Positions 10,020-52,489 of a DNA stretch of 64,000 nt are shown piece by piece. Source of the DNA: Pyrodictiaceae archaeon (GTDB lineage: Archaea > Thermoproteota > Thermoprotei_A > Sulfolobales > Pyrodictiaceae). The notes beneath the pieces are model-generated. The model was not told the origin of the DNA. It worked only from the letters and a program-made list of their open reading frames with translations, and did not search any database. Numbering within the stretch: position 1 is the stretch's first letter; each line of letters starts with the position of its first letter. The position numbers and the translations under genes were made by a program. Location: assembly GCA_027036135.1 (NCBI GenBank), contig JALVSY010000007.1, positions 562,880 to 626,879 on the forward strand, written 5' to 3'.

Positions 10020-10101
10020 CTATATACGTGTTTCATTGCTCCCTCCCAGGGCTCTCCCCATAAGGTAATACCGTGGAGGTATTCTTTGTTGGGAGCTTCT
10101 T

Positions 10102-11454
10102 GTGCCACGACTAGCCGGTGACTGGTTCATAGACATGTTTACGAGCGAGGCCGAGAAACTCATCGACCTGATCCGTGAGAGAAAGGAGCCCAGGATACAG
10201 GTAAGCATCCCTACTCATTGGTGGATAAGTGGGCTATCGAGCAGCTCCTATGATAGAACAGTGGCGGCTGTGGATGGCGGTGGTGGGGTACAGCCCCTGG
10301 CCTTTGGCTGGAGTATATACGTCGCGAGAGCCTATGGGTACGTGGAGGGAGCGGAGCCCGAGAGGGGGCTTGAGCTACGCCTCTTCCCGGTAAGGGATAC
10401 CCGTGTCCTAGACGCGCTACGGACGTGGCTAGAGTACCGCGTCGCGACCTCTCTTGCCTCGAGGCTCAGCAACGCAGTAGTACTCATGGATGGGAGCCTC
10501 TGGGTCGGGATAAGCCTCGCCCTAGGCTCGCTAGCAAAGCTAGCCTCGGGCAACGTTGACAGCGTCGCCGCCGTCTATACTGCTCTTTTCAGCGCCTACA
10601 GCTTATCAGAGCTAGTAAGACTCGTAGAAACTGCCCATAGCCGGGGAGTACTAGTAGCGTTCGTATCCAAGGACCATGGGTTCAGAGCATACAAGGAGAA
10701 GGTCCTACTGGGCCTAGTGGCTGAGAAAACACCCGCGCTACGCGACCTCATAGACCGGGCGCTTGAGTGGTACCCGCTGGCTCTCCGAGACCAGCTAATA
10801 ACAGCCCGTAGACTAGTACCCCCCGAGCTAAGACCACTCTACGACGCTGCTCTAGACCCTAGTTACCGGGATCCCCTCTTCCTAGCAGATAGCATTGGTA
10901 CGGCGAGCCAGGGATACACATGGGTACTCAATATGCCCCCGAGTAGGCGCATGGGCCGCATACTCTCGCGTGGTGTCTCGCTGAGAACCCTCGTGGAGAA
11001 AGCAGTGGCCAAGGCAGAGACGCTGCTAGGGGAGGAGCCCGAGGTCGAGGAGCTAAGAGCCCTCGGGGCTAGGCTCCCCGCGGAGCTTGACCGCTTGCCA
11101 CGCGTCCGCCTCTTCTACACCAGGCTCGGGTCAGGGGACTACCCCCTACTAGTGGAGGTGCCGGGGAGCCTCGGCGATTATTACTCGCGTGGAAGACTCC
11201 TAGAGGAGCCGAGCACTGAGACAGAGCAACTAGTAGCGATACTAGCAAGGCACTACGCTGGCCCAGAGTACTACAACATCCCACTAGTAGCGGCCCACAT
11301 TAACGCAACGTTTACCGGGATGCAGCTAGACCAGTACATGGCCCTACTAGAGCAACTAGCCAATGCCCGGGGAGTCCCGCTGCGATTCGCGCGGAGGAGG
11401 GCGATGTGGGGGGCTTTGCGCAGGAAGAAGAGGAGAAGAACCGTGGGCTGGTAA
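10102..11454 (+). CDS. NurA-domain nuclease paralogue
   Basis: A 450-residue protein with NurA-domain features: VAAVDGGGG (first Asp, near residue 55), NAVVLMDGSLW (second Asp), VAFVSKDHGFRAYKEK, and NIPLVAAHINATFT near the C-terminus. The C-terminus is very basic (RRKKRRRTVGW), suggesting nucleic acid binding. It is longer than the herA-linked NurA at 3827-4909 and has no HerA-like partner next to it. Start GTG 10102. It may act in another resection or defence context; the nuclease call rests on motifs only. Confidence 0.75.
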   Translation: MPRLAGDWFIDMFTSEAEKLIDLIRERKEPRIQVSIPTHWWISGLSSSSYDRTVAAVDGGGGVQPLAFGWSIYVARAYGYVEGAEPERGLELRLFPVRDTRVLDALRTWLEYRVATSLASRLSNAVVLMDGSLWVGISLALGSLAKLASGNVDSVAAVYTALFSAYSLSELVRLVETAHSRGVLVAFVSKDHGFRAYKEKVLLGLVAEKTPALRDLIDRALEWYPLALRDQLITARRLVPPELRPLYDAALDPSYRDPLFLADSIGTASQGYTWVLNMPPSRRMGRILSRGVSLRTLVEKAVAKAETLLGEEPEVEELRALGARLPAELDRLPRVRLFYTRLGSGDYPLLVEVPGSLGDYYSRGRLLEEPSTETEQLVAILARHYAGPEYYNIPLVAAHINATFTGMQLDQYMALLEQLANARGVPLRFARRRAMWGALRRKKRRRTVGW

Positions 11455-17018: not shown

Positions 17019-18242
17019 CTATGTTTGTGCTGTTTGTCTCTCTTTGTTTGCTTGTGGCGGGGTTGGTGCAGGGGGTGTTGGTTGTGGTGTGTAGGGCGGG
17101 TATTGTGGGTATGGTGGTGGGTACGAGGGGTATTGTGTCTGTGGTTGTTGTGTTGTTTGTGGATATTGTGGTGGTGCTTGGTGTATTGGCTGGGTGTTTT
17201 GCTGGGGGGTTGGCTGTATTGGTTGCTGTGCTGGGTACGGGTTGTAGGTTGGTGCTGGGTAGGGGTATAGTGGCGGGGTTGGCGCAGGGTACATGGGGTA
17301 CTGTGGCTGCTGCGCGGGGGCTGCGAAGGCTCTCTGGTAGGCGGTTCTTATGTCCTCGTCTAGTAGGTGGAGGTAGATCTGTGTTACTTTGATGTCGTGG
17401 TGGCCTAGTAGGCGCTGGACTGCTGGTAGAGGGATGCCGCGTCTCAATGCCTCGGTTGCGAAGGTGTGTCTTAGTACGTGTGGTCTTACTTTTCGTGGGT
17501 CTATTCCTGCTCTCTTGGCTAGTGTCTTGAGGCGCTTGTAGAGCGCGCTGTAGCTTATCCCAAGCAGGTTGTCGTCTGGGCCTAGGCCGGGGTTCCTTGC
17601 TAGCCATGCCTCGAGGGCTTGCTGGGTAAGTGCTCCGTAGTAAACGGTTCTCTCCTCGCCGTACTTCGCGTTCCTTACCCTTATCTCGCGCCTGGCCGGG
17701 TCTATGTCTCGTAGCCGTAGCGAGACCGCCTCCTGTGCTCGTAGCCCCGTCTCGAACAATAGGGCAACTATTAGGAGGTCTAGGGGGTCCCTTGCAGCTG
17801 CTACTAGGCGCTCTACCTCCTCTGGGCGAAGAGCCTCCACTCTCGTGTTTCTGGGCTTCTTTACAACGGGTACCCGGACTCCTAGGCCTAGCCACTCGAA
17901 GAACCCGCGGAGGAATAGTGTGTAGTAGTGCATTGTTACTTGTCGCTCCCTCCTCTCCTCGAAGAAGTCCCTCTTCTTCGTCCTCGGTCTCTTTACCCCG
18001 TTGCTCAGCCTGTCATATATCCACGCGGCGACGTCGCTGTCGCTAACCTCTCTCAGAGGCTTACCGCCTATATAGGAGAGGAAATCAGTTATGGCTGCAC
18101 GGTAAGCCTTAATCGTCTTAGGGCTAGCGCCCCCAGCTGCTAGCGCGGCTAGGAATGCCTCAAGGATCTCACTGTTGCTCCTCTTCAGGATATCCCGTGG
18201 AGGCGGTGGTAGCTCGAAGCGAACCAATGCACCTACTCCCAA
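17019..18242 (-). CDS. xerA: XerA-type tyrosine recombinase with Pro/Gln/Tyr-rich C-terminal tail
   Basis: Site-specific tyrosine recombinase: N-terminal SAM-like core-binding domain (about 20-130) and catalytic domain with Arg in ETGLRAQEA, H-x-x-R in RPHVLRHTFA, His in LLGHHDIKVT and nucleophile Tyr in TQIYLHLL. Archaeal XerA is normally about 290 residues and resolves chromosome dimers at dif. Here residues 308-407 (17019-17321) add a tail made almost only of Pro, Gln, Tyr, Thr and Ala with P-x-Y and Y-P repeats, giving a strongly G/T-rich plus strand. The annotated TTG may be too early: TATAAT-like sequence at 18245-18252 would put transcription start near 18222. Role could also be mobile-element integration. 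Confidence 0.85.
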   Translation of the reverse strand: MGVGALVRFELPPPPRDILKRSNSEILEAFLAALAAGGASPKTIKAYRAAITDFLSYIGGKPLREVSDSDVAAWIYDRLSNGVKRPRTKKRDFFEERRERQVTMHYYTLFLRGFFEWLGLGVRVPVVKKPRNTRVEALRPEEVERLVAAARDPLDLLIVALLFETGLRAQEAVSLRLRDIDPARREIRVRNAKYGEERTVYYGALTQQALEAWLARNPGLGPDDNLLGISYSALYKRLKTLAKRAGIDPRKVRPHVLRHTFATEALRRGIPLPAVQRLLGHHDIKVTQIYLHLLDEDIRTAYQRAFAAPAQQPQYPMYPAPTPPLYPYPAPTYNPYPAQQPIQPTPQQNTQPIHQAPPQYPQTTQQPQTQYPSYPPPYPQYPPYTPQPTPPAPTPPQANKERQTAQT

Positions 18243-45224: not shown

Positions 45225-46145
45225 CTACTGGGGCTTGTCGGGTACTACGGGGTTTATGAGGCAGCCTATGCCCTCGACGCAGACCTCCACTATGTCGCCG
45301 GGGCGTAGAAAGCGTGGCGGGTTACGGGCAAAGCCCACTCCAGGAGGCGTGCCCGTGGAGACTATGTCTCCGGGTTCTAGGAATGTGCCACGACTAGCAT
45401 AGGATACCAGGGCCTTCACGTCATGTATCATGTCGCTGGTGCTCCCCCTTTGCAACTCCTCACCGGAAATCCTCAGCGTCAATGTTAGGCCCTTCCAGGG
45501 GTTAAGCAGGGTCCTAGGAACAATGACGGGGCCTATGGGCGCGTAGGTGTCCCTGCTCTTCCCCCTCCACCACTGAGAAGCACCCGCCATGTGCTGCTCG
45601 TAGCGCGCCGAGACATCGTTGAAGCAAGTATAGCCCCAGATATTCTCCACGGCTTCCTCTAGGCTTAGGCTCCTACCAGGGAGCCCGATAACAGCGGCGA
45701 GCTCGGCCTCAGCGTCAACACGTAGCTCAGGGTCGTGGAGCACGATGGGGTCCCCGGGGCCGACAACAGCGTTAACGGTCTTGACAAAGAGATCCGGCAC
45801 CCGTGGCGGCTCCCTGCCCGTCTCGGCAGCGTGGGCGCGGTAGTTCAGCCCAACAGCAATGACCTTCGAGGGCTTCTCGACCGGTGCCAGGAACCTCACA
45901 CCACCCAATGGGAGCCCCTTGTCACTAGCACTAACCATCCTAGCAAGATGCTCCACATCCTCCGGGGGATACTCGAGCATAACCTCCCTTACATCACTAT
46001 AGCCCCAAGCCCCAAGTGGGTAAACCCTGCCACGATAAACAAGCGCAGGCTCAGCACCACCACCAGGAGCAGCTATACGGGCAAGTCCAACCAAGCCCCA
46101 AACCTCATAACCAAGCAACAACCTAAGATCCCTAAGCGATGCCAC
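45225..46145 (-). CDS. Fumarylacetoacetate hydrolase-family protein
   Basis: 306 residues. FAH-domain signs: VIAVGLNYRAHAAETG, VDAEAELAAVIG (metal-binding E-x-E), TCFNDVSARYEQ, RGKSRDTYAPIGPVIV and IVSTGTPPGVG. Members split C-C bonds, decarboxylate or isomerise 2-oxo acids; the exact substrate is not evident. It stands alone. Confidence 0.85.
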   Translation of the reverse strand: MASLRDLRLLLGYEVWGLVGLARIAAPGGGAEPALVYRGRVYPLGAWGYSDVREVMLEYPPEDVEHLARMVSASDKGLPLGGVRFLAPVEKPSKVIAVGLNYRAHAAETGREPPRVPDLFVKTVNAVVGPGDPIVLHDPELRVDAEAELAAVIGLPGRSLSLEEAVENIWGYTCFNDVSARYEQHMAGASQWWRGKSRDTYAPIGPVIVPRTLLNPWKGLTLTLRISGEELQRGSTSDMIHDVKALVSYASRGTFLEPGDIVSTGTPPGVGFARNPPRFLRPGDIVEVCVEGIGCLINPVVPDKPQ

Positions 46146-46199
46146 GCCCCATCACAGCCCTCTCACAAGCCCAAGAGCAAGAGGGGGGAATAGTAATAC

Positions 46200-46424
46200 G
46201 TGGAAATAGCATTCGACAAAGACACAGCACCACTACCAGAGCCTTTCCGCACCCCGCCCGCTACAAGGAGAACTATAGAAGATATGTCTGGTCGACCATG
46301 CGCAGACTTTACTACAAGAATCAAGGCCCCATGGCCGGGACAAAAGCGAGACAAAAGAGACGATGACCTAGGGCAGCAAGGTACGCAGTTACTGGCTAGG
46401 CTCTTCTTCAGTGCAAGAGGCTAA
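46200..46424 (+). CDS. Doubtful small open frame
   Basis: GTG 46200 opens a 74-codon frame, rich in Arg, Pro and Asp (RTIEDMSGRPCADFTTRIKA). It is divergent from the FAH gene and no family is recognised. It fills an otherwise empty 260-bp gap, but may be chance. Confidence 0.25.
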   Translation: MEIAFDKDTAPLPEPFRTPPATRRTIEDMSGRPCADFTTRIKAPWPGQKRDKRDDDLGQQGTQLLARLFFSARG

Positions 46425-46632
46425 AAAGGAAATACACGGTTATAGCGATGTTATATACCAAGAGGAATACGGAGAGATATCTCAGCTGCTGCCCAAGAAG
46501 CTCACGTAACGGCTTATACCTCTTGCCGAGCCTTTGGAGAAGCTGCCTCCTCATATCTAGCACTTTCTCCTTCATATCACCGCCGAGAATGCACTCAATC
46601 AATACGTTATCAATCCTCTCTCGTACTTCCAT
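46408..46632 (-). CDS. Small C-terminally anchored protein
   Basis: 74 residues from ATG 46632: charged helical part (MEVRERIDNVLIECILGGDM, KEKVLDMRRQLLQRLGKRYK) and a C-terminal hydrophobic helix (YLSVFLLVYNIAITVYFLFS). The frame extends to 46704, but a TATA box (CTATAAATGG on the minus strand, near 46707-46716) would place transcription start inside that extension. It resembles tail-anchored proteins. Function unknown. Confidence 0.5.
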   Translation of the reverse strand: MEVRERIDNVLIECILGGDMKEKVLDMRRQLLQRLGKRYKPLRELLGQQLRYLSVFLLVYNIAITVYFLFSLLH

Positions 46633-46834
46633 CCTCCTAACACGGAGATATAGAACTAACCAGTTATGAAATAATATAAACCGCTTACATATATCAATTA
46701 CCATTTATAGCGCCCAAGCACTATAAACTAGCTTTATTACAGAACTTTAGGAAAGCTGATTAATCAAGAGAATAACCCTGTATGCGAAGATTCCAAAAAT
46801 CTCGTTTCGCTTCACGTATCAATGCCCTAGTGTA

Positions 46835-46906
46835 TAGCCTATGTCAGGATAGGGCGCCGGCCTTCGGAGCCGGAGGTCCCGGGTTCAAATCCCGGCGGCT
46901 CCGCCA
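46835..46906 (+). tRNA. tRNA-Arg(TCG) lacking the 5' acceptor strand
   Basis: D stem GCCT/GGGC (46837-46840, 46852-46855), anticodon stem CCGGC/GCCGG with loop CTTCGGA (anticodon TCG at 46864-46866), T arm CCGGG-TTCAAAT-CCCGG, acceptor 3' strand CGGCTCC, discriminator G and encoded CCA (46904-46906) are all there. The expected 5' strand GGAGCCG is absent; the seven bases at 46828-46834 are TAGTGTA and do not pair, and no GGAGCCG lies in the preceding 130 bp. This is a partial tRNA: an attachment-site copy, a degraded gene, or the 3' part of a split tRNA. Confidence 0.7.
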
Positions 46907-47028
46907 CATATAAACCCCTATATAAGTCTTTCCCTTCTTCCAAGGCAAGGCTGTGGCTTCTAGTTCAGATAAGAACCAGGATGGTTCTAGCTTCATCAAT
47001 GATAATCTCAGCGGATAATCTTGACTGA

Positions 47029-47481
47029 CTAGGGCGCAACTTTTAGCCAGGGAACTCTCTTAAAGTCTTCATCGAAGGTTATGACGGTGTCTATGTTATT
47101 GCGTTTACATGTCAGGGCTATGATTGCATCGCTTGGCAGGAGTTTTATTTGCCTAGCGGTCTCTATCATGTCTTGGTATTCCACGTTTTCTACTAGGACT
47201 TCTACCTCAAGGTCTTCCAGTAACTTCCTTATACCATTGGCTATGAATTTTGGGTATCCCTTGTTCGCTATTAGTTTTCTTAGGCTGTATGGTCCTTTGA
47301 GTTCTTCCGTGGCCTGGTAATATTTCCTTGTGGATATGTAGAGTAGTTCGTTTACCACTGTTAGACTGGTGTAGAACTTGTTTTCCTCGTAATCCTCTAG
47401 CAGCTTCCGGGCTTTGCGTGTGAGGTTTGTCTCGAATAATATATTGTAGAATATATTAGTGTCTATAAAGACTTTGTTCAC
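47029..47481 (-). CDS. PIN-domain toxin paired with DUF104-like antitoxin
   Basis: 150 residues, intact PIN domain: KVFIDTNIFYNILFE (Asp), SLTVVNELLYISTRKY (Glu), KLLPSDAIIALTCKRN (Asp) and DTVITFDEDFKRVPWL (Asp). GTG start overlaps the antitoxin stop by 4 bp. A frameshifted relative is at 49888-50335. Confidence 0.85.
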   Translation of the reverse strand: MNKVFIDTNIFYNILFETNLTRKARKLLEDYEENKFYTSLTVVNELLYISTRKYYQATEELKGPYSLRKLIANKGYPKFIANGIRKLLEDLEVEVLVENVEYQDMIETARQIKLLPSDAIIALTCKRNNIDTVITFDEDFKRVPWLKVAP

Positions 47482-47678
47482 TGTGCTTGAGCCTCCTCTT
47501 CATATTCCCTGAGCTCCTCTACAGAGGCCTTACCGAATAATCCAACATATTTGTCGAGCACTTCGCTCACTCTGCGCTTGCGTATGAAGACTACTAGCTC
47601 CTCTCCCTCGTGAAGTTCCACTGGCTCCAAAGGCTTCAGCACGCCTCTTTCATATCTAACCCGTATAACCTTAGACAC
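47478..47678 (-). CDS. DUF104/AF2212-like antitoxin
   Basis: 66 residues: SKVIRVRYERGVLKPLEPVE followed by LHEGEELVVFI is the beta-rich AF2212-like DNA-binding fold, and the acidic tail EELREYEEEAQAQ would bind the PIN toxin. It is closely similar to 49694-49891, showing the two modules are related. A 22-bp palindrome sits 7 bp upstream. Confidence 0.82.
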   Translation of the reverse strand: MSKVIRVRYERGVLKPLEPVELHEGEELVVFIRKRRVSEVLDKYVGLFGKASVEELREYEEEAQAQ

Positions 47679-47684
47679 TTCCTA

Positions 47685-47706
47685 GCCCCAAGCATATGCT
47701 TAGGGC
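47685..47706. promoter_or_regulatory. 22-bp near-perfect palindrome upstream of the antitoxin
   Basis: AAGCATATGCTT is perfect and is extended by GCCC/GGGC with one mismatched pair. It lies 7 bp before the antitoxin start and includes TATA-like CATATG, so it may be the autoregulatory operator. Confidence 0.55.
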
Positions 47707-47878
47707 ATCGAGGCAATTAGCCTTTCCTGTAAGCTGAGTGCTTCCAGATTATCATCATAGGTATCATGTATGATTATCATTATTGAAACATGTTTTCAGT
47801 TCATGGTTTCTATCGGAAACGTTGTTTTTATATTACTGGCTCCACTAAATACCTCAACAGAACAATGTCATACTAGTG

Positions 47879-48250
47879 TTAAGGATCTTTGACTAATGAT
47901 TTAAGTTCTTCGATAAAGGCGTCTACCGAGGGATCGGGGAGTGGTACTACTTTATCGCGCTCGTGCTTATGATGCGGAAAGGTCTCGATATAAGGGTGAT
48001 GGGGTGCATTGTCGTATCTAAGGACGAGTTTTTCGCCGTGCAGCAGCGTGTATGAGTATTTAGCAATAAAGCCTCTAAGAATGAGCTCAGATATAAATAC
48101 CTTAAAATCGTGTTTTACTGCCCACAACCTATAGTAGCCGTCCATGCTCGTGGAACCAGGCTTATATGCTGCGGGAGTGATACTCTGGAATCCCAGGGCC
48201 CGTAGCTTGCTAGTAACATAAGTCACTCCATCGGCGAGTTTAACTCGCAT
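47879..48250 (-). CDS. TumE-type toxin (DUF6516)
   Basis: 123 residues. The stretch YDNAPHHPYIETFPHHKH followed by ERDKVVPLPDPSVDAFIEEL is typical of the TumE family, which pairs with TumA antitoxins. The upstream gene fits TumA and is 12 bp away, so the module looks intact. Mode of action is not established from sequence. Confidence 0.78.
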   Translation of the reverse strand: MRVKLADGVTYVTSKLRALGFQSITPAAYKPGSTSMDGYYRLWAVKHDFKVFISELILRGFIAKYSYTLLHGEKLVLRYDNAPHHPYIETFPHHKHERDKVVPLPDPSVDAFIEELKSLVKDP

Positions 48251-48262
48251 GTTTGCGCCCTT

Positions 48263-48511
48263 TTAGACGTGTTTAAGCTTCTTCTCGAGCTCCTTCTCAA
48301 CGTTGTTTAACTCCTCTACGAGTCCATACCATATCATAAAATCTCCATGGGTCTCCGGGTCCAGAGGTTCAGGGAGTAGCCCCTTGCTCCACTTTTCATA
48401 GAAGTCTTTACTGTTAATGCCATACTTTCTCTCAAATTTCTTAATCTCCTTTATGAGCCATCTTCTCCTTAAGACAAGCTTCTCAACAGCACTTATTGTA
48501 GTAGATTCCAC
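48263..48511 (-). CDS. TumA-like antitoxin
   Basis: 82 residues, strongly helical and charged; RRRWLIKEIKKFERKYGI and FYEKWSKGLLPEPLDPETHG followed by DFMIWYGLVEEL match the small helical partner seen beside TumE toxins. The 200-bp gap on the other side of the toxin (47707-47878) holds only AT-rich sequence. Confidence 0.7.
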   Translation of the reverse strand: MESTTISAVEKLVLRRRWLIKEIKKFERKYGINSKDFYEKWSKGLLPEPLDPETHGDFMIWYGLVEELNNVEKELEKKLKHV

Positions 48512-49021
48512 TGTTGATCCCCTTGTAGTAGATGTGGCCCGTAGAATCTTAAATACATCAATTTCGTTATATTGTCTAGGACAATCCGTGACAATCTATG
48601 CAAGCCTCTAGAAAATTCACGGCATCCTATCTGAGGTGCGGCTTGTCAGTCACGGCTAGCTCTCGTCTCGGAGTAGGGATGATGTAGGAGACCCAGTTAG
48701 TATGCAGCTATTTATATCATTCTATGAGGGTGGTTCTTAGACCCGGTTCTTGCCGCCATATTTCTTTTGTGAGATTCTTGTTCTTGTGGAGCTGGTAGGT
48801 AGCTCCTCCTTCTCTACTAGGCTCGTGGCTGGCTGTTTCTATGTCCCCAACCAGGCTCTACTATCCCGAGGAACTCATCCAAGCCCAGATAGACCCATAG
48901 CCCTAATCATGCCCAAAGTACCGCAGCCCTAATCCTTGCCGTAAGCCCTTAATGCCTCTTTAGGAGCAAGCCCAGAGGCTTAATAGTTATGTAGATACGT
49001 GTATACGTAGGTAGGTATGCC
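48512..49021. other. 510-bp gap, no gene recognised
   Basis: Holds promoters for the divergent TA modules. TACGTGTATACGTA (48996-49009) is a nearly symmetric TATA-containing site just before the vapB start at 49022. I see no intact gene or clear RNA; short frames here have no recognisable family. Confidence 0.4.
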
Positions 49022-49315
49022 GTGAGGAAAAGGAGGGTGACTCTGAGCATTGAGGAGGTTCTCAGGGAGGCTAAGCTAGTGGCCGGTCTCGAGGGTAGAA
49101 GTCTCAGCAGCCTTGTTGAGGAGTATCTGGAGAGCCTAGTGGCGTCGCGGTGGCTAGAAAGGCTTGCTGCCAGTATAGGTGTAGAGAGGCTAGAGCCAAC
49201 CTCCGAGGATGAAATCCCGAGTCAGCGGCCAGGGGGTTTTGACGCTGCCCAAGCTGTTAGAGAGGTTAGGAGGTCCCGTGAGGAGAGGATAACCCATGGC
49301 CTCGGCGGGCAGTGA
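49022..49315 (+). CDS. VapB-like antitoxin, toxin split
   Basis: 97 residues: KRRVTLSIEEVLREAKLVAG followed by LEGRSLSSLVEEYLESLVAS is a ribbon-helix-helix pattern, then an acidic middle and basic end. Start GTG 49022. It overlaps the N-terminal half of a broken VapC gene by 20 bp. Confidence 0.72.
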   Translation: MRKRRVTLSIEEVLREAKLVAGLEGRSLSSLVEEYLESLVASRWLERLAASIGVERLEPTSEDEIPSQRPGGFDAAQAVREVRRSREERITHGLGGQ

Positions 49316-49600
49316 ATGCTACTACCTGGATACCAGCGCCCTTGTGAAACGCTACGTTAAGGAGCCGGGTAGTGAGGTAGTCGACAAGATTTATGCCAAA
49401 GCCTACAGGGGGATAGCAGTTATAGCTATCTCCTACTGGAACATAGCAGAGGCGGCTGTGGTCTTCCGACAAGTATGAGAAAAGGTTGAGACTTAGTGCG
49501 AGGCGCTTGTTGGAAGCCCTCCCACATGAGTCACGCACCCTTGTAGAACTACTGGGCTGAAGCCATAGTACAGAAGCATTCTTCAGCAGTGATGATCATT
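49296..49600 (+). pseudogene. VapC N-terminal half, frameshifted
   Basis: ATG 49296 opens a PIN start: CYYLDTSALVKRYVKEPGSE (Asp) and ISYWNIAEAAVVF (Glu), stopping at TGA near 49476. The next frame continues KYEKRLRLSARRLLEALPHE then SRTLVELLG (to 49558). After that, AAGCAT-N7-CAGTGATGAT (49574-49596) resembles the DNA for the PIN third motif region found intact at 50416-50439. The C-terminal catalytic part is lost here. Confidence 0.7.
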
Positions 49601-49693
49601 TAGGATGACATCTATGGAGATAATCTAGGGACATGTGTGGAAACGAAGAGCTAATTGCCCCAATGCACCTAATGTATAAAGCGGGAGCTAGGG

Positions 49694-49891
49694 TTGTCTA
49701 AGGTTATACGTGTGAGGTACGGGAAGGGCGTGCTGAAGCCGTTGAGTAGCGTAGACCTTGAGGAGGGCAAGGAGTACAGAGTCATAGTGGGAGAGGATAT
49801 AGATGAGCTAATTAAGAAGTACAGGGGAGTTCTCGGGAAATCCTCTGTCAAGGAGTTCCGGGAGCTTGAGGAGGAGGCCCAGACTCAATGA
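49694..49891 (+). CDS. DUF104/AF2212-like antitoxin, second copy
   Basis: 65 residues: SKVIRVRYGKGVLKPLSSVD followed by LEEGKEYRVIVGEDIDELIK, and an acidic end (FRELEEEAQTQ). It is clearly paralogous to 47478-47678. Start TTG 49694; TATA-like GTATAAAG near 49674-49681. It overlaps the toxin start by 4 bp, but the toxin is frameshifted. Confidence 0.8.
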   Translation: MSKVIRVRYGKGVLKPLSSVDLEEGKEYRVIVGEDIDELIKKYRGVLGKSSVKEFRELEEEAQTQ

Positions 49892-50335
49892 TATGCCTCG
49901 ACACAAACATAGTCTATCACTTCCTCTCCGAGACAGAGCTAACTAGCGTCTCAGAGAAGGTTATCAGGGAAGCAATCATAGAAGGCCTAGCTATCCCCAT
50001 GATAGTATACAACGAGCTACTCTACACTACAGGCGCGAAGATTGCCCGGATAAAGTATGGCGTTAAGGGAAAATACTCATTCCGGGAGGCGTATAGCCAA
50101 ATATGGATTCCCTAAAGAAGCCATAGAGAAGGTTAACAGTTTCATCAAGGACTTCAAAATAACCATACTAAGGGATCACCAGGACCCAGACGAACTCGTT
50201 GAGGCAATCAAGGCTTATAGACTAGCGCCAAACGATGCCCAAATAGCCTTAACCTGCAAGCATAGAGACATAGGAAAGCTAGCAACATTCGACAAGGACT
50301 TCAAGCAAGTTCCATGGCTCAACCTAATTCCGTAA
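49888..50335 (+). pseudogene. PIN toxin of second DUF104-like module, frameshifted
   Basis: Frame one gives ICLDTNIVYHFLSETELTSV, IVYNELLYTTGAKIARIKYG and stops at 50115. The rest is in the next frame from about 50085: RRIAKYGFPKEAIEKVNSFI, AYRLAPNDAQIALTCKHRD and LATFDKDFKQVPWLNLIP. Aligned with the intact relative at 47029-47481, one frameshift near TTCCGGGAGG separates the halves. Confidence 0.78.
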
Positions 50336-50364
50336 CTCTTGAGAGATTATCAACTAGGGTGATC

Positions 50365-50583
50365 TAGTATCAATATTCCTTAATCCTGATCCACGAGACC
50401 ACCGAGCCCGTGCTAAAGCATCATATATACAGTGATGATGCTCTACAAATAGCCTCAGCACGTCATACGAATTGTAAGCACTTAGTTACAGCCAATAAGA
50501 AGCTCGCTAAAGTGACGGCTGTCGAAAACCAGCGGTCATCACGGCGGGAGACGAAGCAATATAGGGCCGGAGTAGTCCAGTAG
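50365..50583 (+). pseudogene. VapC C-terminal fragment
   Basis: One frame reads LILIHETTEPVLKHHIYSDD then ALQIASARHTNCKHLVTANK and KLAKVTAVE. This is the C-terminal third of a PIN toxin, with D-D-A-L-Q-I-A-S and the final catalytic position (TANKK where D is usual). No N-terminal half precedes it directly; a fitting one lies at 49296-49600 across the DUF104-like/PIN cassette. Confidence 0.7.
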
Positions 50584-50984
50584 TTAGACATAATCATCCC
50601 TAAGTAGTCTCGTCGAGTAGTCACTCCGAGCCTTAGTCTCTTGGCTTGGAGGCAAGCTTCACGGTCGTCGATTAGAAGCAGGCTGGCATTAATCTCTAGA
50701 GCTAGTACCATTACCTCTGCTCTGCCCTCGTCCAGCATAAATTGGAGAATTCTCTTCAAGCGTTCATCCTTTATTCCTACTACCTTGATCCAAGAGGCTT
50801 CCCTTACCTCTCTTGAGCCTGGCCGTCCCCGTCCCTCCACTACGACCTCGCGATACACCGCAGGAGGGATTAGGAGCTCGCCGAAGAACTCTCTTAGTAG
50901 GCTGAGGCGCCCTATCTGTGAGAGGCGTATCAAGGGACTAGAGTTAGACACTACTGTCCTGCTCTTCCGCGAAGGCGATGTCAT
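50463..50984 (-). CDS. DUF3368 PIN-type toxin with altered C-terminus
   Basis: 173 residues. The first 130 match DUF3368 PIN proteins: VVSNSSPLIRLSQIGRLSLL, IPPAVYREVVVEGRGRPG, LDEGRAEVMVLALEINASLL and LIDDREACLQAKRLRLGV. From about residue 132 the family pattern is lost, and the tail is the antisense of the VapC fragment on the plus strand. A recombination near 50590 probably replaced the normal end. Activity uncertain. Paired with the UPF0175 gene upstream. Confidence 0.7.
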   Translation of the reverse strand: MTSPSRKSRTVVSNSSPLIRLSQIGRLSLLREFFGELLIPPAVYREVVVEGRGRPGSREVREASWIKVVGIKDERLKRILQFMLDEGRAEVMVLALEINASLLLIDDREACLQAKRLRLGVTTRRDYLGMIMSNYWTTPALYCFVSRRDDRWFSTAVTLASFLLAVTKCLQFV

Positions 50985-51225
50985 CCTCCAGCTCCTCCCT
51001 TGTATAATGTCTCTCGATACCCCTCTTGGCTAGCTCCTCTAGGAACTCCCACTTGGATAGCCCAGCAAGGCGACGGGCCTGACCAAGACTAAGTACTCCC
51101 CGAGCATAGAGAGCTATCGCTAGCTCTATCCTGGCAACCCTCTCGAACTCCTCTTCTGGGACACGAGCACCCTCAACAATATCCCTTGGGACGCGTATCA
51201 CAACAAACTTGCTCTTTGATGACAC
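50944..51225 (-). CDS. UPF0175-family antitoxin
   Basis: 93 residues: VVIRVPRDIVEGARVPEEEF followed by ARIELAIALYARGVLSLGQA and RRLAGLSKWEFLEELAKRGI is the UPF0175 pattern, a helix-turn-helix protein commonly encoded with DUF3368 toxins. It overlaps the toxin gene by 41 bp. Confidence 0.85.
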   Translation of the reverse strand: MSSKSKFVVIRVPRDIVEGARVPEEEFERVARIELAIALYARGVLSLGQARRLAGLSKWEFLEELAKRGIERHYTREELEDDIAFAEEQDSSV

Positions 51226-51586
51226 CCGGATACCCTATTTGCTAGAACAATCATAATGAATTATAAGTCTTTAAGGAATCAGTATCTTCTAACAGCGTGC
51301 CGAAGAACGCTGCCTAGGCAAGCTGAGGACGGAATATCATCCCTTAAAAGCTCATGTATTTAGCAATGCCGCATTATACTATACCGTAAAGACGTGGAGA
51401 TACGGGGAGACTAGCGAGCTTTAGCATACTCAATAGCAGGCATTAGATAATCAGACTCATCACTATGTTTCGGTCCGTATCCTACCCTAAAGCGTCTGCT
51501 TCTAAGTCTAGGGTCTTCGGGCTGAATGGAGCTTATGGGTCTTCAAGACCCCTTACGCATTTTCTTAATACCTGGCCCTCATTATT
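51226..51586. other. Gap without recognisable gene
   Basis: About 360 bp of AT-rich sequence between the UPF0175 antitoxin and a PIN remnant. TATA-like elements near 51255-51270 fit the antitoxin promoter. I see no reading frame with family features, repeat or RNA structure I can support. Confidence 0.4.
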
Positions 51587-51715
51587 CTAACGTTTACTAA
51601 TCAGTATCGCTACATGCTTGGTTGTTGCTATGCAGTATGCGTCGTCTGCTCTACAGCCAGTAAGCAAGGCTACCTCTGCCGCCTTATCGTGGACGAGTTC
51701 CTCGTCTATATACAT
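51587..51715 (-). pseudogene. PIN-domain C-terminal remnant
   Basis: ATG 51715 to TAG 51587-51589 encodes 42 residues: DKAAEVALLTGCRADDAYCI and ATTKHVAILISKR. The D-D-A-Y-x-I-A-T pattern and the following I-L-I-S are the end of a PIN toxin, and a final N-D is replaced by a stop. The N-terminal part is missing. Confidence 0.55.
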
Positions 51716-51748
51716 TGATGTGCCTAAGCACTATTTTTAGCAGTATAT

Positions 51749-52489
51749 CTAGATTGTTAGTATTGATAAATCGTTTGGCACTATTATTCCCCGCCCTTGT
51801 GTCTTTTTTGCCTCGTTTATGCTCTGTATTGTTAGGTGTACTAGGGCTAGTAGCGCGTCCCTCCTCATATGCGTCTTGTAGCTTGTTGCCTGGGTGACTG
51901 TTTGGTGCCCTGTCCCTCTCGCTACTTCCTCCATCCCGGTGGGCATTGTGGCCTCTGTTATCATTAGATCTATCTCTCTGGCTAGTTCCTGATAGGCAGT
52001 GGTTAGCCTCGTGTCTGATGTGTAGAGGAGTCTTGCCCCGTTTTTCTCCTCTACTATGGCTCCGTAGCAGGGAATGCTGTGGCTAGATGTGGTTATCCTG
52101 AGCACTGTGTCTCCGAGTCTTAGTTCTTCGTGGAGCCTGGCGGCTATGATGCTTATTCTTGGCTGGGCGCTGCGTGGCATCAGTCGTAGTGCTATGTCTT
52201 TCGCGCTCTCTACTAGGGGCTCTGGGATCACTATGCCTGGGGGATTGGTGTTCTCTGCGGCTGCGTAGACTGTTAGCTCGAATAGCCCCGACCAGTGATC
52301 GAGGTGAAGATGGGACAGGTAGACATAGTCTATGTCGTGGACGCTGTAGCCTGCCTCGTAGAGGCGCTGGCCGCACCCTGGCCCACAGTCTAGCAAGACC
52401 CTGGTATCGCTGGTCTCGATGAGTATGCTGTTCTCTGCCCTGCCCGGAGGCGCGCCAGCACCCCCTGTGCCGAGGAACACGATGCGCAA
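51749..52489 (-). CDS. Metallo-beta-lactamase-fold hydrolase, RNase Z-like
   Basis: 246 residues: MRIVFLGTGGAGAPPGRAEN start, LSHLHLDHWSGLFEL (H-x-H-x-D-H), SSHSIPCYG, LLYTSDTRLT (bridging Asp) and a final His in LLALVHLT. The layout is that of RNase Z/arylsulfatase-like MBL proteins, but the long exosite arm of tRNase Z is not visible, so the substrate is open. Located at the right edge of the TA island. Confidence 0.82.
   Translation of the reverse strand: MRIVFLGTGGAGAPPGRAENSILIETSDTRVLLDCGPGCGQRLYEAGYSVHDIDYVYLSHLHLDHWSGLFELTVYAAAENTNPPGIVIPEPLVESAKDIALRLMPRSAQPRISIIAARLHEELRLGDTVLRITTSSHSIPCYGAIVEEKNGARLLYTSDTRLTTAYQELAREIDLMITEATMPTGMEEVARGTGHQTVTQATSYKTHMRRDALLALVHLTIQSINEAKKTQGRGIIVPNDLSILTI

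What the first reader, a model, noticed from the sequence alone, without database searches (positions are those of the whole stretch)
49296..50583. VapC gene apparently split by a DUF104-like/PIN toxin-antitoxin cassette
An N-terminal half of a VapC (LDTSALVKRYV to about 49600) and a C-terminal third (HHIYSDDALQIASA, 50365-50583) lie on the same strand on either side of a complete antitoxin plus PIN cassette (49694-50335). The two VapC pieces are complementary. An imperfect direct repeat brackets the cassette: AAGCAT-N7-CAGTGATGAT (49574-49596) and AAGCAT-N8-CAGTGATGAT (50416-50439). One TA system inserted into another, using the toxin gene as target, would be an uncommon form of TA island growth.
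Basis: partly seen in the sequence, partly recalled or inferred. Interest (0 to 1): 0.7.

Follow-up and report, generated by a model that had tools for sequence, protein, structure and literature searches.

The report
Toxin-antitoxin cassettes stacked at tRNA-Arg
A broken toxin gene in a heat-loving archaeon really does have another, also decayed, toxin-antitoxin pair sitting inside it, and that pair belongs to a family of one-kilobase toxin-antitoxin cassettes that pile up behind arginine tRNA genes, each closed by a copy of the tRNA's second half, which points to a little-explored way in which such genes may travel.

Summary
A vapBC operon (DUF6364 antitoxin 49022-49315, PIN toxin from 49296) is interrupted by a DUF104/PIN cassette; the toxin's C-terminal part resumes near 50368. 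Both toxin pieces match the same intact VapC homologues and complementary parts of one profile (positions 10-59 and 104-151 of 156). Two details are wrong: the cassette's PIN gene is frameshifted, and the 'direct repeat' is no target-site duplication, because its left arm is cassette sequence found beside cassettes elsewhere. The wider finding is larger. The 5.6-kb TA island is absent from a same-genus genome, where its two neighbour genes lie 79 bp apart. It begins with a pseudo-tRNA-Arg. In related archaea such cassettes form arrays on the 3' side of tRNA-Arg genes, antisense to them; each ~1-kb unit is closed by a tRNA-Arg 3' half about 160 bp before the antitoxin. 26 of 127 DUF104 antitoxins in 39 genomes, and 44 of 74 in a similarity-selected set, have it; 49 distinct fragments lie on the 3' side of intact tRNA-Arg, 2 on the 5' side. 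PF16795 integrases sit directly behind tRNA-Arg in three genomes. Best reading: minimal integrative TA cassettes mobilised in trans. Mobility is inferred, not shown.

The parts
46146..51748 (.). TA island lying between an MBL-fold hydrolase gene (51749-52489, -) and an FAA-hydrolase-family gene (45225-46145, -)
   Evidence: In G004 (one contig, same genus) the two genes are adjacent, L244 651-1394 and 1474-2424, 79 bp apart; Pfam Lactamase_B_2 and FAA_hydrolase
46835..46906 (+). pseudo-tRNA-Arg (TCG letters) with a mismatched acceptor stem; start of the island's first cassette
   Evidence: 91.8% identity to positions 8-79 of the G024 tRNA-Arg; not found by ARAGORN and (introns to 300) 28, though a permissive intron setting listed a tRNA-Arg(TCG) among ten intron-bearing candidates; no Rfam match over a gathering score (where one same-clan match was left out of the table); five full-length matches to tRNA-Arg (84-95%) lie elsewhere in the genome
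47029..47481 (-). PIN toxin of the first cassette (open)
   Evidence: PIN E 3.2e-18
47478..47678 (-). DUF104 (AF2212-like) antitoxin of the first cassette, starting 772 bp from the pseudo-tRNA 3' end
   Evidence: PF01954 E 8.8e-23; the corresponding distance to a full tRNA-Arg is 770-797 in 7 of 13 loci
47679..47835 (-). conserved 'head' of the first cassette (TATA-like box, GTTTCC, GAAACCAT, decayed GGAAAC, GATAATC, GGCTAATTG); no tRNA half seen beside it
   Evidence: sequence; compare
47879..48511 (-). TumE-family toxin (47879-48250) and a small upstream partner gene (48263-48511)
   Evidence: PF20126 E 4.5e-17; partner without Pfam match
49022..49315 (+). DUF6364 antitoxin (vapB) of the interrupted operon
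   Evidence: PF19891 E 4.3e-8
49296..49478 (+). N-terminal piece of the interrupted vapC
   Evidence: profile positions 10-59, E 1.3e-19
49474..49557 (+). possible frameshifted continuation of vapC up to the left junction (uncertain)
   Evidence: open in the +1 frame; profile score about zero
49560..49693 (+). truncated head of the inserted cassette; tRNA half, TATA box and first half-site not seen
   Evidence: 49573-49626 aligns with L072, 49645-49675 with L009 and L007, all above 200 shuffles; 49560-49597 against L009 only a weak blastn hit (E 0.53)
49694..49891 (+). DUF104 (AF2212-like) antitoxin of the inserted cassette
   Evidence: PF01954 E 9.3e-20
49888..50335 (+). PIN toxin of the inserted cassette, frameshifted (ORFs 49888-50115 and 50057-50335)
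50336..50366 (+). 3' tail of the inserted cassette; right junction probably between 50355 and 50386
   Evidence: 14 nt (50341-50354) shared with L009 above shuffles; the same test with L006, L007, L008 and L010 did not exceed shuffles
50368..50583 (+). C-terminal piece of the interrupted vapC
   Evidence: profile positions 104-151, E 1.7e-12
50463..51225 (-). UPF0175 antitoxin (50944-51225) and PIN-like toxin (ORF 50463-50984)
   Evidence: PF03683 E 3.6e-27; weak, below-cut-off PIN-like match E 9.8e-4

Best explanation
The window shows a decayed vapBC operon with a DUF104/PIN toxin-antitoxin cassette inside its toxin gene. The cassette belongs to a family of ~1-kb TA cassettes, many of which lie in arrays on the 3' side of tRNA-Arg genes. 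Unit plan, read in the TA direction: [antisense tRNA-Arg 3' half, from the anticodon stem-loop to the 3' end] - TATA-like box - head with three copies of a 6-bp site (the first inverted) and GATTATC/GATAATC - antitoxin - toxin - 3' flank with GATTATC - [next tRNA half or the intact tRNA]. This is the layout left by integration into a tRNA gene at the anticodon loop: the incoming unit restores the tRNA and pushes the old 3' half outward. Most likely the units are non-autonomous integrative cassettes, minimal relatives of larger tRNA-Arg-targeting elements that carry a PF16795 (archaeal phage) integrase, mobilised in trans and then kept by addiction. The window island is a transplanted relic of such an array (pseudo-tRNA-Arg plus a first cassette at the usual distance), and the copy in vapC is a truncated one that entered imprecisely. 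Shown: the gene interruption, the unit layout, the polarity, anticodon matching, the island's absence in G004, integrases behind tRNA-Arg. Inferred: integration as the mechanism, action in trans, addiction, transplantation of the island, the order of events.
For: Interruption; cassette homology 49632-50354 and 49573-49626. Empty site. tRNA association: 127 PF01954 hits in 23 of 39 genomes; 29 of 127 lie within 6 kb of one of 85 tRNA-Arg rows that I took from the capped list, 29 of 29 on the 3' side, 26 antisense (two of the 29 are the window's own, beside its pseudo-tRNA). 26 of 127 have a tRNA-Arg half antisense 149-171 bp before the start codon; 0 fragment hits in Markov-shuffled loci. Of 80 similarity-selected loci, 44 of the 74 with enough upstream DNA have it, at 104-185 bp. 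49 distinct fragments on the 3' side of intact tRNA-Arg on its strand, 1 on the other strand, 2 on the 5' side, with 219 and 141 kb of DNA available. In 50 fragment-tRNA pairs the anticodon letters are readable in 36 and equal in 26 (10,000 label shuffles: mean 13.2, best 23). Head repeats in fixed windows in 80 of 144 heads against 207 of 4320 shuffles. Strict head motif: 8 hits in 39 genomes, 8 of 8 just upstream of a PF01954 hit by coordinates, 0 in the reversed control. Not tandem duplication: units in one array carry different TA families. Transfer: the cassette is 83% identical in DNA to G024 and G034 of another family while the FAA-hydrolase gene is 73% to same-genus G004. Integrase: 4 of 38 PF16795 hits lie 811-886 bp behind tRNA-Arg, same strand; in L258 the order is tRNA-Arg, integrase, cargo, PIN/DUF104, tRNA half, second PIN, second (weak) tRNA half.
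Against: No excision, circle or polymorphic unit was observed. No PF16795 hit lies in the window, and G025 (one contig, with a four-cassette array) has none; its single PF00589 recombinase is probably XerA (name recalled). 101 of 127 PF01954 hits in the relatives, and 30 of 74 in the selected set, show no half at the expected place. 10 of 36 readable anticodons do not match the neighbouring tRNA, three of them in one array. 64 of 144 heads lack the triple repeat. Three of the four elements with an integrase behind tRNA-Arg show no downstream tRNA-Arg half in the stretch taken. The copy in vapC has no tRNA half and its ends are not unit ends. Stretch 49474-49557 is unassigned, so the left junction is uncertain by tens of bases.
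Confidence: 0.7

Rival explanations
1. The tRNA-Arg halves are not attachment sites but regulatory parts of the TA units (promoter-upstream elements, insulators, or transcribed decoys or targets of the PIN ribonuclease); arrays grow by homologous recombination between similar heads.
For: The half sits just before a TATA-like box at a nearly constant distance from the antitoxin; heads contain dyad and triple repeats; GATTATC is enriched on both sides of the half. VapC toxins that cut tRNA anticodon loops are known (recalled).
Against: Fragments carry the anticodon letters of the neighbouring tRNA more often than shuffles and lie 49:2 on its 3' side. Related DUF104/PIN genes occur with different heads (L008 against L007 and L009), and UPF0175 and DUF433 antitoxins share one head type. 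Integrases sit at tRNA-Arg in the same set of genomes.
Confidence: 0.2
2. The two vapC pieces are relics of two different vapC genes brought together by deletions; the cassette was never inserted into a gene.
For: The middle of vapC (profile positions 60-103) is not recognisable; the region is rich in TA remnants.
Against: Both pieces match the same relatives, lie on the same strand, do not overlap, and little coding length is missing once the cassette's length is subtracted.
Confidence: 0.15
3. One reading: insertion at a target site duplicated as AAGCAT-N7/8-CAGTGATGAT.
For: The two stretches exist at the stated coordinates.
Against: The left arm is inside the cassette's head and the right arm inside vapC; both are displaced from the junctions; the match is within chance by my estimate.
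Confidence: 0.04
4. Arrays are tandem duplications of one tRNA-TA segment.
For: Many units are about 1 kb.
Against: Units in one array (L104) carry different families: DUF104/PIN, DUF433 with DUF5615, DUF3368-type and other PIN genes; the aligned fragments lack the tRNA 5' half.
Confidence: 0.04

Closest known systems
Type II VapBC and DUF104 (COG2880, AF2212-like)/PIN toxin-antitoxin systems
   Same: Gene content of the cassettes; DUF104 among PIN-associated antitoxins, TA clustering and possible transfer of TA 'cassettes' are described in PMC2701414 (passages read).
   Different: In that paper a word search for tRNA gave one passage, on another subject; tRNA-Arg halves, heads and arrays do not appear in the passages read.
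Archaeal integrative elements in tRNA genes (SSV- and pNOB8-type; names recalled)
   Same: Insertion at the 3' part of a tRNA gene with direct repeats of tRNA sequence; PF16795 integrase next to tRNA-Arg in L258-L261. PMC4158269 describes an element in a tRNA-Ser gene flanked by 55-nt repeats (passages read).
   Different: The cassettes are ~1 kb with a TA pair and no recognised integrase, and stack in arrays.
CIMEs and tandem accretion of ICE/IME in tRNA genes (recalled)
   Same: att-flanked segments without their own recombinase, stacked at one tRNA.
   Different: Known examples are larger and bacterial; here a typical unit is a single TA pair with a shared head (recalled comparison).
Integron cassette arrays with TA cassettes (recalled)
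   Same: Array of single-function ~1-kb cassettes, many of them TA.
   Different: No integron integrase or attC site was looked for; the boundary is a tRNA half and cassettes carry their own head.

Membership tests
VapBC (PIN) toxin, the interrupted gene | PIN domain with N- and C-terminal conserved motifs in one reading frame | tested here: not met
   PIN N part and C part present but separated and frameshifted: a pseudogene of the family
VapBC (PIN) toxin, the interrupted gene | antitoxin gene directly upstream | tested here: met
   DUF6364 antitoxin 49022-49315 overlapping the toxin start
DUF104/PIN TA cassette, 49694-50335 | AF2212-like antitoxin followed by an intact PIN gene | tested here: not met
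   antitoxin open, PIN frameshifted
tRNA-targeting integrative element (arrays in relatives) | direct repeats of a tRNA 3' part flanking the units | tested here: met
   for the part of the DUF104 loci counted there
tRNA-targeting integrative element (arrays in relatives) | own integrase | tested here: not met
   by coordinates no PF00589 hit and no PF16795 hit over its cut-off lies in the arrays of G024:C17, G025, G034:C2 or G034:C3; a below-cut-off PF16795 hit (E 0.002) lies on the array contig at G024:C17:36779-36910
tRNA-targeting integrative element (arrays in relatives) | excision and circular form | not testable with these tools
   needs reads or experiments
CIME (cis-mobilisable element) | att-flanked segment without recombinase, related to an element with one at the same site | tested here: inconclusive
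   integrase elements occur at tRNA-Arg in G013, G021 and G022 and one (L258) ends in a cassette and tRNA half; mobilisation not shown
Integron | IntI integrase and attC sites | not tested
   PF00589 is one copy in 28 of the 31 genomes with a hit; IntI type and attC not searched

The most novel reading that the evidence does not exclude
Hyperthermophilic archaea of this order keep an integron-like system at tRNA-Arg genes: single TA pairs of several families travel as ~1-kb att-flanked cassettes with a shared, exchangeable head that works as promoter and recombination module, are inserted in trans by PF16795 integrases at the anticodon loop, and stack in order behind the tRNA.
Probability: 0.5. 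Interest if true: 0.85.

Novelty: new variant of a known kind. Interest (0 to 1): 0.74.

Why it matters
TA loci are often called mobile, but how single chromosomal TA pairs move is mostly unknown. A ~1-kb unit with a tRNA-half boundary, a shared head and integrases acting at the same tRNA would give a concrete, testable route, and would help to explain the dense TA islands of hyperthermophiles and their graveyards, such as this interrupted vapC.

Tried and rejected
Target-site duplication: rejected, the left arm is cassette head. Tandem duplication: rejected on unit content. Viral carriers: one viral-contig scan with the DUF104 alignment A1 gave 40 pattern matches but no relative. XerA as helper: PF00589 is one copy in 28 of the 31 genomes with a hit, including genomes without a DUF104 hit, so uninformative. 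A head specific to one antitoxin family: not supported, DUF104 occurs with three head types and UPF0175 and DUF433 share one. The direct test of 49474-49557 as vapC did not decide. RNA against DNA role of the head repeats: not separable by covariation, not pursued. A tRNA pattern with 3 mismatches was too strict (6 hits). A first, loose test of the head triple gave 74 of 165 against 323 of 3300 shuffles; the positional test replaced it. L104 8126-8650, which looks like a nucleotidyltransferase by eye, has no Pfam match at E 0.01. The ORF at window 51590-51715 has no Pfam match at E 0.05. Literature: eight full-text searches, of which I saw listings and abstract starts; passages only in PMC2701414, PMC4158269 and PMC13140500. 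Nothing seen on tRNA halves between TA cassettes; most subscription papers are not held, so this is weak evidence of novelty.

Full report
What was claimed. A VapC gene split by a complete DUF104/PIN cassette, bracketed by a direct repeat (49296-50583).

What is there. A DUF6364 antitoxin (49022-49315) overlaps the start of a PIN toxin whose first frame ends at 49478. A DUF104 antitoxin (PF01954, E 9.3e-20) and a PIN gene follow at 49694-50335, the PIN gene broken by a frameshift. A PIN C-terminal piece follows from about 50368. Intact VapC homologues (L026, L027, L028, L031) match both vapC pieces (L028 and L031). A profile of these four finds the N piece at positions 10-59 (E 1.3e-19) and the C piece at 104-151 (E 1.7e-12). 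The stretch 49474-49557 is undecided. So a toxin gene of one TA system is interrupted by another TA cassette, and both toxin genes are now broken.

Junctions. The cassette recurs at 79-86% DNA identity in G002, G014, G024, G025 and G034; the match with G002 covers window 49632-50305 and that with G014 49645-50354. Upstream, 49573-49626 aligns with L072 2303-2353 (score 48, best shuffle 24). By eye the resemblance to L009's head begins at about 49560, but blastn gives it only E 0.53, and L009 and L007 exceed shuffles only from 49645 and 49650 while L010 does not exceed them. On the right, 14 nt shared with L009 end at 50354; four other cassettes tested did not exceed shuffles there.

The island. 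In G004, a one-contig genome of the same genus, a metallo-beta-lactamase-fold gene (L244 651-1394) and an FAA-hydrolase gene (L244 1474-2424) are 79 bp apart on one strand. In the window they flank a 5.6-kb block (46146-51748). The block holds a pseudo-tRNA-Arg (46835-46906), a DUF104/PIN cassette with a full head, a TumE-type pair, the interrupted vapBC, and a UPF0175/PIN-like pair. The G004 interval is read in full and holds no tRNA. In G005, G011 and G014 the two genes are 3-6 kb apart in another orientation, and no tRNA-Arg in the capped lists lies there.

Arrays in relatives. In L066, L067, L068 and L071 an intact tRNA-Arg is followed on its 3' side by DUF104/PIN and other TA units running antisense, separated by tRNA-Arg 3' halves beginning near the anticodon stem. 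Over 39 genomes, PF01954 gives 127 hits in 23 genomes. 29 of 127 lie within 6 kb of a listed tRNA-Arg, 29 of 29 on the 3' side, 26 antisense. I then fetched DNA around the 127. A search with the last 48 nt of nine distinct intact tRNA-Arg gave 54 fragments (the window's pseudo-tRNA among them) and none in a Markov-shuffled control; 45 are antisense to the nearest PF01954 hit and nine in its orientation, several of the nine beside tRNA-Val or tRNA-Pro genes. 26 of 127 antitoxins have a half 149-171 bp upstream, antisense. A second set of 80 loci, chosen by similarity to these antitoxins and so biased to them, gave 44 of 74; 30 of 74 lack it and six had too little upstream DNA.

Polarity and identity. 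On the union of both sets, 49 distinct fragments lie on the 3' side of an intact tRNA-Arg on its strand, 1 on the other strand, and 2 (both in L197) on the 5' side; the loci offer 219 kb on the 3' and 141 kb on the 5' side of 40 tRNA-Arg. In the 50 fragment-tRNA pairs, anticodon letters could be read in 36 and equal those of the neighbouring tRNA in 26 (shuffled labels: mean 13.2, maximum 23 of 10,000). One fragment (L173) is paired with two tRNAs there.

The head. Between tRNA half and antitoxin lies a conserved segment: TATA-like box, then three copies of one 6-bp site (the first inverted relative to the others), with GATTATC/GATAATC between. Three site versions were seen: GTTTCC, GTTGCA and GTCCCA. 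80 of 144 heads carry the triple within fixed windows (one mismatch allowed), against 207 of 4320 shuffled. GATTATC/GATAATC occurs 44 times in 146 heads (3.7 expected; in 36 of 146) and 43 times in the preceding 3' flanks (5.2 expected; in 38 of 146); in coding stretches 21 times (9.5 expected). Head type and antitoxin family are only loosely linked: GTTTCC 35 DUF104; GTTGCA 12 DUF104; GTCCCA 3 UPF0175, 2 DUF433, 3 DUF104; the rest unassigned (the UPF0175 and DUF433 query proteins confirmed by Pfam). Related TA genes carry a GTTGCA head in L008 but GTTTCC heads in L007 and L009.

Who moves them. PF16795 integrases occur in 18 of 39 genomes. Four of 38 hits sit 811-886 bp behind a tRNA-Arg on the same strand, in G013, G021 and G022 (two). 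In L258 the order is tRNA-Arg, integrase of 434 aa (PF16795 E 2.3e-18), cargo, PIN/DUF104, tRNA half (87% over 45 nt), a second PIN, and a weak second tRNA half (69%). In L259, L260 and L261 no downstream tRNA-Arg half was found in the stretch taken. G025 has an array but no PF16795 hit; a below-cut-off hit lies on the array contig of G024. Transfer is supported by identity: the window's cassette is 83% identical to copies in G024 and G034, which belong to another family, while the FAA-hydrolase gene is 73% identical to same-genus G004 and 66-71% to the four other family members with a match.

Verdict. The more interesting result is a class of ~1-kb TA cassettes bounded by tRNA-Arg 3' halves. 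That they integrate through these halves is the best explanation (0.7), not a demonstrated fact.

Noticed in passing
L157, L159, L161, L162: 3' halves next to tRNA-Val genes, with ATGCAT-type repeats, occur near weak PF01954 hits; one in L161 precedes a DUF433 gene (Pfam E 5.2e-24), so tRNAs other than tRNA-Arg may anchor similar units (origin of the halves by eye).
   Followed up: partly
window 17358-17834 (-): The genome's single PF00589 tyrosine recombinase hit, probably XerA (name recalled), lies in this window (G000:C7:580237-580713).
   Followed up: no
L073 around 10040-10455 (G014:C1:1660037-1660451): A relative of the same DUF6364/VapC pair is also truncated in G014; the C-terminal piece found no credible match in that locus.
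   Followed up: partly
L135 4281-5354 (own genome, G000:C30): A unit in the own genome with tRNA half, GTTTCC head, DUF104 and a further tRNA half; the toxin gene was not tested.
   Followed up: partly
window 51587-51715 (-): Short ORF with a PIN-like C-terminal motif (DDAYCIA) by eye, without a Pfam match; perhaps another toxin remnant.
   Followed up: partly
L186: Three fragments with TCT letters behind a tRNA-Arg with GCG anticodon, a consistent exception to the anticodon match.
   Followed up: no
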